Assembly (NCBI GenBank): GCA_946887345.1
Contig: CAMPKR010000075.1
Coordinates: forward strand, 1-9,290
Source of the DNA: an uncultured Bacteroidota bacterium
Lineage (GTDB): Bacteria; Bacteroidota; Bacteroidia; Chitinophagales; Chitinophagaceae
Length of the DNA stretch: 9,290 nt
Reading direction: 5' to 3'
In this document: positions 2,168 through 5,345 of the stretch, in pieces
Numbering within the stretch: the stretch's first letter is position 1
Layout of the letters: every line of letters starts with the position of its first letter
The notes under the pieces: generated by a model
The model's database searches: none
Told to the model about the DNA's origin: nothing
What the model saw: only the letters and a program-made list of their open reading frames with translations
Translations under genes and position numbers: made by a program

Positions 2168-2992
2168 ATGCAATCTCATCCCATAGGCATTTTCGATTCG
2201 GGTTATGGCGGACTTACTGTCTTCAGTTCTATAGCAGCTTTGTTGCCGCATTACGACTATATATACCTGGGCGACAATGGCCGTGCACCCTATGGAAACC
2301 GCTCTTTTGAGACGGTACATCAATACACACTGGAAGCGGTAGAATGGTTTTTTAAAATGGGTTGCCCGCTTGTGATCCTTGCCTGCAATACTGCCTCAGC
2401 CAAAGCTCTCCGCACTATACAGCAGCAAGACCTGGAACATATCGGTCCCGATAAAAGGGTGCTGGGAGTGATCAGGCCTTCCGCAGAAGTAATAGGGAAT
2501 TATACGAAAACGAAGGCTGTGGGCATATTGGGCACGAAAGGCACTGTAAATTCTAATTCGTACAAAATAGAGATCAATAAATTCTTCCCTGATGTAGCTG
2601 TGCATCAATTAGCCTGCCCCATGTGGGTACCCCTGGTAGAAAATGGCGAATACGAGTCAGAAAGCGCAGACTACTATGTAAAGAAATACCTTGACCAGCT
2701 GCTTTCTTCTGCGCCAGATATAGATACAATACTTCTAGCCTGCACCCACTATCCACTGCTGATGAATAAAATAAAAACTTACCTCCCCCCACATATAAAG
2801 GTCGTTGCCCAGGGTGATCTAGTGGCACACAGCCTTGCTAACTATTTAAACCGCCATGCCGAAATAGCAGATGCGATCAGCAAAAACGGAAACATTAAGT
2901 TTTATACTACCGATAATAAAGATGATTTCAACTCCCTGGGAAGTGTATTTTTCGGGCGGGAAATCCAGGCGGAATTTCTCGAATTGAAGTAA
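2168..2992 (+). CDS. murI: Glutamate racemase
   Basis: This enzyme interconverts L- and D-glutamate in the cytoplasm, supplying D-Glu for the peptidoglycan stem peptide (added by MurD). Its 274 residues match the usual family length. Visible motifs: the N-terminal GIFDSGYGGLTV with D10 and S11; GDNGRAPYG near residues 35-43; ACNTAS with catalytic C73; and ACTHYPLL with the second catalytic C192 followed by H194. The paired cysteines act as the two acid/base residues in this cofactor-independent family. LGTKGTVNS near 121-129 is also typical. The start has no Shine-Dalgarno site, as is common in Bacteroidota, and the DSGYGG motif follows at the normal distance. The gene is monocistronic in this context: a divergent lipoprotein gene lies upstream, and a strong hairpin lies directly after the stop. 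No missing residue or frameshift was seen. Confidence 0.97.
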   Translation: MQSHPIGIFDSGYGGLTVFSSIAALLPHYDYIYLGDNGRAPYGNRSFETVHQYTLEAVEWFFKMGCPLVILACNTASAKALRTIQQQDLEHIGPDKRVLGVIRPSAEVIGNYTKTKAVGILGTKGTVNSNSYKIEINKFFPDVAVHQLACPMWVPLVENGEYESESADYYVKKYLDQLLSSAPDIDTILLACTHYPLLMNKIKTYLPPHIKVVAQGDLVAHSLANYLNRHAEIADAISKNGNIKFYTTDNKDDFNSLGSVFFGREIQAEFLELK

Positions 2993-3035
2993 AAAAATAT
3001 GCTCCCTGAAAAGGGAGCATGTATACAATTTTTTT
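2991..3035. terminator. Bidirectional terminator after murI and at the end of RNA unit A
   Basis: A perfect 9-bp stem (ATGCTCCCT at 2999-3007, AGGGAGCAT at 3012-3020) encloses a GAAA tetraloop. On the plus strand a run of seven T follows at 3029-3035, 8 nt after the stem, so it can terminate murI. On the minus strand the stem is followed after about one base by seven T (the A-run at 2991-2997). That is the more canonical arrangement, and it would end a minus-strand transcript coming from the gap. Confidence 0.8.
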
Positions 3036-3089
3036 AACCATTTAAAGAAGCTTTTTGGGTTTCTCTCTCCACCTCTCCGCCGCTCCTTC
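2991..3089 (-). ncRNA. Candidate small RNA, unit A of a three-copy tandem family
   Basis: Read on the minus strand, the order of elements is: a -7-like box TACTTTTA (plus positions 3096-3103, one mismatch to TAnnTTTG), a purine-rich stretch, GAGAGAAA (3067-3060), TTTAAATGGTTAA (3046-3034), then a 9-bp hairpin and a T7 run (3020-2991). The predicted transcript is about 99 nt. The same order of elements recurs at 3290-3385 and 3490-3578. A longer minus-strand reading frame starts at the ATG within 3092-3094 and reads through, but its frame is not kept in the other copies, so an RNA role is favoured. No known family is recognised. Confidence 0.45.
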
Positions 3090-3289
3090 ATATAGTAAAA
3101 GTATATTGTCAATTGTTGAGGTTTCGTTAATGTGCTGTTGGGGAAATGTTAAAACATATTTTCATTTATACTCAACATTATCCGCTTTATACTTACTTAC
3201 CTAAATACAAGATGAAAAATCGTACCAACCTCGGCTATACCATTATTGCAGACTTCGGGTGCATAACATAGTATGGCGCCCTATAATAG

Positions 3290-3315
3290 AAAAACCCTCC
3301 GGCGCTGCCGGAGGG
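3290..3315 (-). terminator. Intrinsic terminator of RNA unit C
   Basis: A perfect 9-bp GC-rich stem (CCCTCCGGC at 3295-3303, GCCGGAGGG at 3307-3315) has a 3-nt loop. On the minus strand it is directly followed by five T (the A-run at 3290-3294). On the plus strand no T-run follows, so the signal is directional. No protein gene ends upstream of it on this strand except pyrG, which already has its own terminator. Confidence 0.75.
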
Positions 3316-3385
3316 CGGATTAACCAGGAAAAGTATGGTAGAAGCAGTTTCTCTCTTATGCCTCCAATAGCTTTTTCCAATCCTT
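3290..3385 (-). ncRNA. Candidate small RNA, unit C of a three-copy tandem family
   Basis: On the minus strand: a -7-like box TAATTTTA (plus 3392-3399, one mismatch to TAnnTTTG), GAGAGAAA (3355-3348), TGGTTAA (3326-3320), then a GC-rich hairpin and T-run. The predicted length is about 96 nt. It has the clearest secondary structure of the three. GGATTGGAAAA near the 5' end (3383-3373) pairs with TTTTCC (3332-3327) and AATCC (3321-3317), giving an 11-bp helix with a 5-nt bulge. That bulge is TGGTT, part of the conserved box. A small inner stem AGAA/TTCT can form around 3340-3352. The family is unknown. Confidence 0.5.
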
Positions 3386-3489
3386 AGAGATTAAAATTAT
3401 TGAAGTGCATTGATTTATGATGTTAAGCCCGGATATAGAACTGTTAAAATATAATTATGCACGTCCCGACCAAGCGAAGGACCGAAGGC

Positions 3490-3519
3490 AAAACGCCCTC
3501 CTATAAATATAGGAGGGCG
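3490..3519 (-). terminator. Intrinsic terminator of RNA unit B
   Basis: A 12-bp inverted repeat (CGCCCTCCTATA at 3494-3505, TATAGGAGGGCG at 3508-3519) forms a long stem with a tight AT-rich loop. On the minus strand it is followed by four T (3493-3490), then GCC. On the plus strand a T-run comes only about 13 nt after the stem (3534-3539), so minus-strand use is favoured. Confidence 0.65.
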
Positions 3520-3578
3520 AAAAAATCTTTCAATTTTTTAACCATTTAAAATTTAAGATTCAAGATTTCTCTCAAATC
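3490..3578 (-). ncRNA. Candidate small RNA, unit B of a three-copy tandem family
   Basis: On the minus strand, downstream of a perfect TAnnTTTG box (3592-3585): GAGAGAAAT (3573-3565), TTTAAATGGTTAA (3550-3538), then a 12-bp hairpin and T4. The predicted length is about 89 nt if transcription starts roughly 7 nt after the box. A stretch of about 20 nt (plus 3531-3550) is identical to unit A (3026-3046) except for one T in a T-run. It starts just after the pyrG terminator, so it should be an independent transcript or depend on read-through. A 14-codon frame (3545-3501) begins at the ATG in the conserved box but is not preserved in unit C. Confidence 0.5.
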
Positions 3579-3584
3579 CTGGCA

Positions 3585-3592
3585 CAAAAATA
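3585..3592 (-). promoter_or_regulatory. Bacteroidota -7 box for RNA unit B
   Basis: The minus strand reads TATTTTTG, a full match to the Bacteroidota sigma-A -7 consensus TAnnTTTG. No TTG was seen at the expected -33 position (about 20 nt upstream), so only half the promoter is supported. Confidence 0.4.
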
Positions 3593-3637
3593 AACGTTTA
3601 TCAGTTATATTTTAGTTAAAGTGATTTATTTGCGCAT

Positions 3638-3668
3638 AAAAAACCCCATACATGTGAAAATATGGGGT
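3638..3668 (-). terminator. Intrinsic terminator of pyrG
   Basis: An 8-bp stem (ACCCCATA at 3643-3650, TATGGGGT at 3661-3668) with a 10-nt loop is followed on the minus strand by a T-run of six (3643-3638), the first of which closes the stem. It lies 24 bp after the pyrG stop codon, the standard place. Confidence 0.85.
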
Positions 3669-3692: not shown

Positions 3693-5345
3693 CTATTCTG
3701 CCGTGCTTTTTTCAAAAACCTGGTGGCTTTGGGTATTTCTTCTTTCGTGGGTTTCCTTTGCCGCCTTTACAAAGGCTACAAATAACGGGTGAGGATTTTC
3801 TACCGTGCTCTTATACTCGGGGTGGAACTGAACACCTACATAGAATGGATGTGACGGTATTTCCACAATTTCCACCAGTCCGGTTTTAGTATTCTTCCCT
3901 ACAGGTATCATACCCGCGTTCTCGTATGCGTCAATATATTCGTTGTTGAACTCGTAACGATGCCTGTGGCGCTCTGAGATATGAGTAGTGCCGTAAATAG
4001 AAGCAGTCTTGGAGTCAGTACGCAATTCGCAGTCATAGGCACCAAGGCGCATTGTTCCGCCCATTTGCGTAATGTTCTTCTGCTCTTCCATCATAGCTAT
4101 CACCCCCTGGTCTGTATCGGGGTTCATCTCTGTAGAGTGGGCCTTTTGCATACCCAGCACATTGCGTGCAAATTCTACACAGGCCATCTGCATCCCCAGG
4201 CAGATACCAAAGAAAGGAATCTTATTCTCACGCGCATAGCGTATGGCTTCTATTTTTCCTTCTATACCGCGACTACCGAAACCAGGCGCAACGAGTATTG
4301 CATCGAGATTCTGCAGCTTCTCTACGGCATTGTCGATAGTAAGATGCTCTGAGTGAATGTTACGTACTTCTACCTTGCATTCATTCATGGCGCCTGCATG
4401 TATCAGGCCTTCGAGTATAGATTTATATGCATCCTGCAGCTCCACGTATTTGCCTATCAGGCCTATGCTCACTTTCGATTTAGGATAGCGCAGTTTATTC
4501 AGGAATTCTTTCCAGCGATGCAGCTCGGGCTCTGTGCCTTGTGGCAGGTTCAACTTCTGGAGGCATATCAGGTCCAGCTTTTCACGCATCATCTCCAGCG
4601 GCACGTTATAGATGGTATCCGCATCCAGCGCTTCTATTACAGCTTCAGGGGTAACATTACAGAACAGCGCAATCTTTCTTCTCAGTTCAGTATACAAAGG
4701 TTCTTCAGTACGGCAAACAAGCACATCGGGATTCAAACCGTGCTCACTCATCATCTTTACGGAGTGCTGGGTAGGTTTTGTTTTCAGTTCTTTTGCCGCC
4801 TTCAGATAAGGTATAAGTGTCAGGTGAACTACGATGCAATTCTCGTCACCCATCTCCCATTTCAGCTGGCGTACAGCTTCTATGTAAGGAAGTGACTCAA
4901 TATCACCCACCGTTCCCCCAAGCTCGGTAATGACGATATCGAATTTGTTATCCTGCCCCAGCAGGGTCATACGGCGCTTTATTTCATCTGTGATATGAGG
5001 GATTACCTGCACTGTTTTGCCCAGGTATGCACCTTCACGCTCTTTATTGATGACGTATTGATAGATTCGGCCGGTAGTAACATTATTGGCCTGCGAGGTA
5101 AATGTATTCAGGTAACGCTCGTAGTGACCAAGGTCAAGATCTGTTTCCGCACCATCCTCAGTTACATAGCATTCGCCATGCTCGTAAGGATTCAGGGTCC
5201 CTGGGTCAACGTTAATGTAAGGATCAAATTTTTGGATAGTAGTGCTGTAGCCGCGGGCCTGGAGCAGTTTTGCTAACGATGCTGCAATAATTCCCTTTCC
5301 GAGAGAAGACGTAACCCCTCCGGTTACAAATACATACTTTGTCAT
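3693..5345 (-). CDS. pyrG: CTP synthase (glutamine-hydrolysing)
   Basis: This enzyme makes CTP from UTP, using ATP and ammonia channelled from glutamine, in the cytoplasm. Its 550 residues are close to the usual 535-555. The N-terminal synthase domain (about 1-270) starts with the P-loop GGVTSSLGKG (9-18) and has EDGAETDLDLGHYER (63-77, including D71) and ELGGTVGDIES (141-151), the ATP/Mg and UTP-binding segments. The C-terminal class I glutamine amidotransferase domain (about 295-535) has the nucleophile elbow GICLGMQ with C382, and FHPEYKS with H508 and E510 completing the triad. All key residues are present. The ATG is directly followed by TKYVFVTGG, the standard N-terminus. A promoter lies about 80-110 bp upstream and a clean terminator follows the stop, so it is probably transcribed alone although the PagL-like gene precedes it on the same strand. 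The C-terminal tail (about 536-550) is polar and probably flexible. Confidence 0.98.
   Translation of the reverse strand: MTKYVFVTGGVTSSLGKGIIAASLAKLLQARGYSTTIQKFDPYINVDPGTLNPYEHGECYVTEDGAETDLDLGHYERYLNTFTSQANNVTTGRIYQYVINKEREGAYLGKTVQVIPHITDEIKRRMTLLGQDNKFDIVITELGGTVGDIESLPYIEAVRQLKWEMGDENCIVVHLTLIPYLKAAKELKTKPTQHSVKMMSEHGLNPDVLVCRTEEPLYTELRRKIALFCNVTPEAVIEALDADTIYNVPLEMMREKLDLICLQKLNLPQGTEPELHRWKEFLNKLRYPKSKVSIGLIGKYVELQDAYKSILEGLIHAGAMNECKVEVRNIHSEHLTIDNAVEKLQNLDAILVAPGFGSRGIEGKIEAIRYARENKIPFFGICLGMQMACVEFARNVLGMQKAHSTEMNPDTDQGVIAMMEEQKNITQMGGTMRLGAYDCELRTDSKTASIYGTTHISERHRHRYEFNNEYIDAYENAGMIPVGKNTKTGLVEIVEIPSHPFYVGVQFHPEYKSTVENPHPLFVAFVKAAKETHERRNTQSHQVFEKSTAE

What the first reader, a model, noticed from the sequence alone, without database searches (positions are those of the whole stretch)
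2991..3592. Tandem array of three related small-RNA-like units between murI and pyrG
Seen directly: on the minus strand the gap contains three copies of the same ordered pattern. Each has GAGAGAAA, then TGGTTAA, then a perfect GC-rich hairpin, then a T-run. The distance between the two boxes, measured on the plus strand as TTAACCA start to TTTCTCTC start, is 26 (3034 to 3060), 28 (3320 to 3348) and 28 nt (3538 to 3566). A -7-like box (full match or one mismatch to TAnnTTTG) lies upstream of each, and predicted lengths are about 99, 96 and 89 nt. Hairpin sequences and flanks differ while the boxes and their order are kept, which suggests an old duplication under selection rather than recent copying. 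Three terminators in a row are not needed for pyrG, which has its own. Inference: a multicopy sRNA family not known to me.
Basis: partly seen in the sequence, partly recalled or inferred. Interest (0 to 1): 0.72.

Follow-up and report, generated by a model that had tools for sequence, protein, structure and literature searches.

The report
Three tandem predicted small-RNA genes
Between two ordinary genes, a Bacteroidota bacterium carries three predicted small-RNA genes in a row whose switches are laid out like those of phosphate-uptake genes in its relatives, so the RNAs may be made when phosphate runs short.

Summary
Three minus-strand units lie between murI and pyrG, each with a -7 box, GAGAGAAA, TGGTTAA, a hairpin and T's. 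The box pair appears in 0 of 3000 dinucleotide shuffles of the gap. Rfam has no match at gathering score. Two relatives (L008, L102) carry one copy in the same place, orthologous to the middle unit; a third (L002) has a doubtful one.

The main new result lies upstream. The promoters carry TTAACA-type repeats about 11 bp apart, 52-53 nt from first repeat to TTT(G/A) in win1, win2, L008 and L102. The same layout precedes 11 of 13 porin(-pstS) promoters read in relatives. A score model built from those 11 alone ranks win1's promoter second among independent sites in 0.94 Mb. Published Bacteroidota PhoP DAP-seq gives TTTAACA as most conserved bases (passages).

Best reading: small regulatory RNAs switched on by a Pho-type response regulator, exposing two boxes for pairing. 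Expression, regulator and targets are untested; one target search was negative. win3 is the weakest unit. The clear form was found in the window and two relatives only. Known kind, apparently new family.

The parts
3114..3152 (-). win1 upstream box: four TTAACA-type repeats 11 bp apart (TTAACA, CCAACA, TTAACG, TCAACA)
   Evidence: read back; score 20.4 with a model from pst-type promoters only, second among independent sites in 942 kb; 4 of 20000 AT-matched random 75-mers reach it
3096..3103 (-). win1 -7 box TACTTTTA
   Evidence: matches TAnnTTTG with one mismatch
2991..3089 (-). win1 predicted RNA, 99 nt; GAGAGAAA 3060-3067, TGGTTAA 3034-3040, terminator hairpin 2999-3020
   Evidence: start inferred from position after the -7 box
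3410..3447 (-). win2 upstream box: TTAACA, ATATCC, TTAACA, AATCAA (steps 11, 10, 11)
   Evidence: score 10.0, reached by 44 of 20000 AT-matched random 75-mers
3392..3399 (-). win2 -7 box TAATTTTA
3289..3384 (-). win2 predicted RNA, 96 nt, the member with orthologs (L008, L102); GGAGGCATAAGAGAGA unchanged in all three; GAGAGAAA 3348-3355, TGGTTAA 3320-3326, hairpin 3295-3315
3603..3619 (-). win3 upstream box, two repeats TTAACT and ATAACT; the other two positions are weak
   Evidence: whole-box score only 2.3, reached by 309 of 20000 random 75-mers
3585..3592 (-). win3 -7 box TATTTTTG
   Evidence: full match to TAnnTTTG
3489..3580 (-). win3 predicted RNA, 92 nt; GAGAGAAA 3566-3573, TGGTTAA 3538-3544, hairpin 3494-3519
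   Evidence: shares TTTAAATGGTT(A)AAAAAATTG with win1 (0 of 2000 shuffles as good); not found by model R2
3643..3668 (-). hairpin followed by T's, the likely terminator of pyrG itself
   Evidence: sequence read
2168..2992 (+). murI (glutamate racemase), convergent neighbour
   Evidence: ORF; 114 relatives by tblastn, 80 kept
3693..5345 (-). pyrG (CTP synthase), upstream neighbour on the same strand

Best explanation
The array is three small regulatory RNA genes under a Pho-type response regulator (PhoB, called PhoP in some Bacteroidota). At low phosphate the regulator would bind the 11-bp TTAACA-type repeats and bring RNA polymerase to the TAnnTTT(G/A) -7 box. Each RNA of 90-100 nt ends at its own terminator. 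A 5' hairpin shows GAGAGA in or near a loop and leaves GGUUAA mostly single-stranded; these two boxes would pair with mRNAs, perhaps with the help of an RRM-type protein, and retune genes during phosphate shortage. Shown here: the anatomy, that the boxes are not chance, homologs in two relatives, promoter geometry shared with porin(-pstS) promoters, predicted accessibility of the boxes. Inferred: that the RNAs are made, which regulator binds, the phosphate signal, pairing and targets.
For: Box pair in 0 of 3000 shuffles. Homologs between murI and pyrG in L008 and L102 with an unchanged 16-mer. Repeat-to-TTT(G/A) distance 52 nt in 11 of 11 trained porin(-pstS) promoters and in win2, L102, L008; 53 in win1. 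The model from those 11 alone scores win1 20.4, L008 14.6, L102 11.0, L002 10.4, win2 10.0 (4, 10, 39, 41, 44 of 20000 random AT-matched 75-mers reach these). In the two genomes that hold the sRNA (G004, G015) the same box, again exactly 52 nt from TTTG, precedes a lipoprotein gene next to a TonB receptor; in F. johnsoniae a TonB receptor and a pectin-lyase-fold lipoprotein of the PhoBR operon are strongly induced by phosphate depletion (passages of PMC8115612). A PstS downstream of such a box passes TIGR00975. PhoP of Riemerella: most conserved bases TTTAACA (passages of PMC9603813). GAGAGA at least 63% unpaired in 5 of 6 RNAs and GGTT(A/T)A at least 65% in 5 of 6. RRM_1 proteins in 7 of 7 relatives searched.
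Against: No expression data. win3's box is weak (309 of 20000 reach it) and its GAGAGA only 34% unpaired. Fold stability beats shuffles for L102, L008 and win3 (z -3.0, -2.2, -2.3) but not for win1, win2 or L002 (z -0.9, -0.8, +1.0). 2 of 13 porin promoters lacked the box, and 3 of 7 regions around PstS-type genes did too. In G004 and G015 themselves no high-scoring PstS was found, so the pst promoter could not be compared inside those genomes. Riemerella PhoP has 583 peaks and an ArcA-like motif, so the regulator may not be phosphate-specific. The complement of the conserved 16-mer is no commoner than control (26 and 15 against 30 and 18). That the G004/G015 lipoprotein is a homolog of the F. 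johnsoniae one was not tested.
Confidence: 0.5

Rival explanations
1. The units are sRNA genes as described, but the TTAACA repeats belong to a broader or different OmpR-family regulator (for example envelope or redox stress), so the signal is not phosphate.
For: Riemerella PhoP binds 583 sites with an ArcA-like TTTAACA motif (passages). Sites over score 8 also occur elsewhere in the murI loci (57 positions in 942 kb, many of them orthologous or overlapping). 3 of the 6 non-porin, non-lipoprotein matches were read and show no Pho link.
Against: The exact 52-nt layout is shared with porin(-pstS) promoters (11 of 11 trained) and with the TonB/lipoprotein locus in the two genomes that carry the sRNA.
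Confidence: 0.25
2. The units are mainly terminators or 3'-UTR pieces of pyrG that became stable RNAs, without a regulatory role of their own; in G015 no separate terminator is evident between pyrG and the unit.
For: In L102 the box starts some 20 nt after the pyrG stop with no hairpin between them (read). win1's hairpin abuts the murI stop and could end both transcripts.
Against: In the window pyrG has its own hairpin at 3643-3668, and each unit has its own promoter-like layout. A 16-mer inside the RNA is unchanged across three genomes while its flanks vary.
Confidence: 0.13
3. The units are not trans-acting RNAs but a cis element (riboswitch or attenuator) or tiny peptide genes (ATGGTTAAAAAA in win1 and win3 could start a peptide).
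For: L102 and win2 fold into a closed stem with an internal loop, somewhat aptamer-like. win1 and win3 share TTTAAATGGTT(A)AAAAAATTG.
Against: No same-strand gene follows any unit; next comes another unit or the convergent murI. The ATG is missing in win2, L008 and L102 at this point, and the frames run into the hairpins (read from the sequence).
Confidence: 0.06
4. Chance: AT-rich intergenic sequence with unrelated terminators and accidental boxes.
For: win2 and win3 share little but one box (595 of 2000 shuffles as good). The relaxed box pattern is no commoner than its reversed control in 13 genomes (24 against 38).
Against: 0 of 3000 shuffles hold even one box pair; orthologs in two relatives; promoter scores.
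Confidence: 0.04

Closest known systems
FopS / GibS multicopy sRNAs of Bacteroides thetaiotaomicron (PMC11697453, passages)
   Same: Several copies per genome, similar sizes, own TAnnTTTG-type promoters for FopS, a Rho-independent terminator, a conserved single-stranded seed. The published 70% consensus of the FopS R1' seed contains AAGGTTAA, which is also in L008, and GGTTAA is in all three window units. An RRM protein (RbpB) binds FopS, and RRM_1 proteins occur in 7 of 7 relatives searched.
   Different: FopS has its seed in a single-stranded 5' stretch and no GAGAGA hairpin is described in the passages seen; FopS responds to bile salts and its copies are dispersed; no Rfam match of the window reached gathering score. 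The shared 6-8 nt are too short to claim homology.
Pho regulon promoters (PhoB/PhoP boxes)
   Same: Tandem 6-bp repeats at an 11-bp step just upstream of the promoter (E. coli and B. subtilis forms recalled); TTTAACA in Riemerella PhoP DAP-seq (passages); same layout as porin(-pstS) promoters of relatives.
   Different: Here the box drives predicted non-coding RNAs; binding of the regulator is not shown.
Flavobacterium psychrophilum independent sRNAs such as Rfp18 (PMC9723704, passages)
   Same: Independently transcribed sRNAs of Bacteroidota; the sigma-A -7 consensus TAnnTTTG is described there.
   Different: No sequence comparison was made; Rfp18 is tied to proteases in that paper.

Membership tests
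Small regulatory RNA gene | own promoter and own intrinsic terminator in an intergenic region, no conserved reading frame | tested here: met
   -7 boxes, hairpins and T's read back; promoter scores; no shared ATG across win2, L008, L102. By sequence only.
Small regulatory RNA gene | a discrete transcript exists | not testable with these tools
   no RNA data at hand
Small regulatory RNA gene | pairs with target mRNAs | tested here: inconclusive
   16-mer complement no commoner than control in 2 genomes; 11 of 41 matches read, none convincing; shorter seeds not tried
Pho regulon (PhoB/PhoP-controlled) | tandem 11-bp repeats at a fixed distance from the -7 box, shared with known phosphate genes of the clade | tested here: met
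   met for win1, win2, L008, L102; for win3 inconclusive
Pho regulon (PhoB/PhoP-controlled) | binding by the regulator and induction at low phosphate | not testable with these tools
   needs gel shift, reporter and expression tests
FopS / GibS family | R1/R1' seed in a single-stranded 5' stretch directly followed by the terminator | tested here: not met
   the window RNAs begin with a hairpin; only the 6-8 nt GGTTAA/AAGGTTAA core is shared, compared by eye with the consensus
FopS / GibS family | match to a covariance model of the family | tested here: inconclusive
   no Rfam family reached gathering score; whether FopS is in this Rfam copy was not checked
Riboswitch or attenuator | lies 5' of a gene on the same strand that it controls | tested here: not met
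   each unit is followed by its terminator and then another unit or convergent murI

The most novel reading that the evidence does not exclude
A Pho-regulon sRNA cassette in Bacteroidota: one ancestral RNA beside murI, grown to three tandem, separately promoted members in this lineage, which retune costly genes at low phosphate through GAGAGA and GGUUAA seeds, a phosphate-starvation counterpart of FopS.
Probability: 0.4. Interest if true: 0.7.

Novelty: new member of a known kind. Interest (0 to 1): 0.54.

Why it matters
Phosphate limits growth in many habitats. The listings and passages seen here on Bacteroidota describe phosphate control of proteins and show no small RNA under that control. 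If the reading is right, this is a candidate RNA arm of the response, and the box model (four 11-bp TTAACA-type repeats, 52 nt from first repeat to TTTG) could be used to predict phosphate-controlled genes in Chitinophaga-like bacteria from sequence.

Tried and rejected
Strict box pattern: only the window's three among the window and 80 loci. Relaxed pattern with a hairpin: the window plus L008. Relaxed pattern in 13 genomes: 24 matches against 38 in the reversed control. Loose TTAACA triple pattern with 2 mismatches in 8 genomes: 44 against 46 in the control. RNAalifold on three sequences: stems misaligned, no pair with both sides changed, so structure rests on single-sequence folds. Combined pattern TTAACA..TTAAC..GAGAGA in 393 genomes: 20 places in 19 genomes, while the control column adds up to about 30, so the pattern as such is not enriched; the two known copies are among the 20, one other (G207) was read and lies before a protein gene, 17 were not read. 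Weak hits of R1 (84 of 86 genomes with E up to 0.1) and R2 (7 of 9 with E up to 0.01) were taken as background by score and not read one by one. Target search negative. Peptide reading rejected because the ATG is not kept.

Selections to know. One search gave 24 porin loci; 18 of these plus L205 and L206 went into (L226 is the same place as L206; L227 and L229-L232 are partial matches). For 7 of the 20 no reading frame passed my filter (one of them, L209, is the L202 place, which shows the box); 13 were read, 11 have the box, L211 and L228 do not. In L213, L216 and L219 two repeat registers tied and I took the upstream one, so the 52-nt count partly reflects my choice in three of eleven; in L206 the box is TTTA. 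That pstS follows the porin was seen in the loci only (4 of 7 regions), not checked for every porin. Only one PstS (L202) was put to TIGR00975. The pattern was drawn with the porin boxes in view, so its four porin-promoter matches are not independent. The score background is the murI neighbourhoods L001-L080, not whole genomes, and includes the L008 and L002 sites.

Full report
What is there. On the minus strand between pyrG (3693-5345) and the convergent murI (2168-2992) lie three units. After pyrG's own terminator-like hairpin (3643-3668) come win3 (RNA 3489-3580), win2 (3289-3384) and win1 (2991-3089). Each has a -7 box of the Bacteroidota type (TAnnTTTG; consensus seen in passages of PMC9723704), an inferred start 4 to 7 bases later, GAGAGAAA, TGGTTAA, a perfect GC-rich hairpin and T's. 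The box pair is in 0 of 3000 dinucleotide shuffles of the gap. No same-strand gene follows any unit before the convergent murI. Rfam gives nothing at gathering score; five weak matches (E 0.85 to 4.7) are far below their families' cut-offs.

Relatives. No whole genome is held for the window. A scan with murI brought 80 loci, mostly Chitinophagales and Mucilaginibacter by title. pyrG is seen in 8 of 80 and lies convergent next to murI in 4: L002, L008, L010, L021. L008 has one clear homolog in the gap, L002 a shorter, doubtful one, L010 none that I could see in its gap; the gap of L021 was not read. A DNA search with the L008 copy in 147 genomes found one more strong match, L102 of G015, again beside murI; ten weaker matches (E 0.0005 to 0.01) were mostly short pieces, of which seven were looked at without finding the unit. 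win2, L008 and L102 share GGAGGCATAAGAGAGA unchanged. Source names for a protein on G015's contig say Flavipsychrobacter. Two sequence models found only G004 and G015 strongly: 2 of 296 genomes and 2 of 394; the two sets overlap. R2, built from win2, L008 and L102 with their promoters, also finds win1 (E = 0.014) but not win3, among the window, L001-L050 and L102. win1 and win3 share a block around TGGTTAA (0 of 2000 shuffles as good). So one member (win2) has orthologs, and two (win1, win3) form a pair that I saw in no other genome.

The RNAs. In single-sequence folds GAGAGA is at least 63% unpaired in 5 of 6 RNAs (34% in win3) and GGTT(A/T)A at least 65% in 5 of 6 (47% in L002). L102 and win2 share a plan: a closing GGAU/AUCC stem, an A-rich/U-rich stem, a GAGAGA loop, and GGUUAA on the 3' side between the two stems. 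Stability beats shuffles for L102, L008 and win3 (z -3.0, -2.2, -2.3), not for win1, win2 or L002 (-0.9, -0.8, +1.0).

The promoters. Upstream of the units stand TTAACA-like repeats; win1 has four, exactly 11 bp apart. This is how PhoB-type sites look (E. coli and B. subtilis forms recalled), so I read promoters of phosphate genes. PF12849 was sought in 10 relatives. Of 7 regions fetched around high-scoring or similar PstS genes, 4 have a porin-like gene before pstS and TTAACATTAAATTAAT-like repeats ending in GTAACA before the porin; 3 do not. One of these PstS proteins passes TIGR00975 (370.9 bits, cut-off 205). The porin was then sought in 119 genomes (16 with a match), and of 13 promoters read, 11 carry the box. 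In these 11, TTT(G/A) starts 52 nt after the first repeat; in win2, L102 and L008 also 52, in win1 53. A score model from these 11 alone, run over the window and 80 loci (942 kb, both strands), puts win1 second among independent sites, behind the promoter of a SusC/RagA-family gene in L066. Against 20000 AT-matched random 75-mers, 4, 10, 39, 41, 44 and 309 reach the scores of win1, L008, L102, L002, win2 and win3.

Is it phosphate? A tighter pattern in 18 genomes gave 12 matches against 3 in its control. Four are porin promoters already seen; two, in G004 and G015, lie before a lipoprotein gene that follows a TonB-receptor gene, and there the first repeat is again exactly 52 nt from TTTG. Of the other six, three were read and show no Pho link. 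The lipoprotein matches no model in the NCBIfam or Pfam copies searched; its relatives bear PF28492 in the protein database. Passages of PMC8115612, with table rows, report that in F. johnsoniae the TonB receptor and a pectin-lyase-fold lipoprotein of the PhoBR operon are strongly induced when phosphate is depleted; whether the G004/G015 pair are their homologs was not tested. Passages of PMC9603813 give TTTAACA as the most conserved bases of Riemerella PhoP sites, but also 583 peaks and an ArcA-like motif, so the regulator may act more broadly. In G004 and G015 no high-scoring PstS was found.

Function. The likeliest mechanism is activation by a Pho-type regulator at low phosphate, then pairing through the two boxes, perhaps with an RRM protein (7 of 7 relatives have one over the cut-off). 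Targets are unknown: the complement of the conserved 16-mer occurs 26 and 15 times in G004 and G015 with up to 3 mismatches (two of these are the sRNA itself) against 30 and 18 in the control, and 11 of the 41 matches, read one by one, gave no convincing site.

Known relatives. FopS/GibS (passages of PMC11697453) are the nearest kind: multicopy Bacteroidota sRNAs with an RRM partner and a seed consensus that contains AAGGTTAA. The likeness is short and was judged by eye; the architecture and control differ, so I do not file these as FopS. The paper listings, limited to the open library and those terms, showed me no Bacteroidota sRNA under Pho control.

Verdict. Real and not chance, probably an array of sRNA genes without a database entry, with a good but unproven case for Pho control.

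Noticed in passing
L289 and L290 (G004, G015), box at base 1501 of the reverse strand: A Pho-like box 52 nt from TTTG precedes a PF28492-type lipoprotein gene that follows a TonB-receptor gene; the place also holds the same Sua5-like, nucleotidyltransferase-like and macro-domain-like genes (by eye) that precede porin-pstS in L202-L204.
   Followed up: partly
L066:7933-8030: The highest-scoring box in the scanned loci lies before a SusC/RagA-family gene (TIGR04056), a candidate phosphate-controlled SusC/D pair.
   Followed up: partly
L179, L180, L181, L182, L184, upstream of the second PBP_like_2-type gene: A conserved promoter block like GTTAAATTA.TGTTACAAC stands before this gene in all five of these loci; a different regulator site or a variant.
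   Followed up: no
about 17 loci such as L035, L037, L048, L057, L072, near base 2200: Orthologous TTAACAC..TTAACAACTG repeats before the same gene in many loci, another likely response-regulator site.
   Followed up: no
2990-3020: win1's terminator overlaps the murI stop codon by position and may end both convergent transcripts.
   Followed up: no
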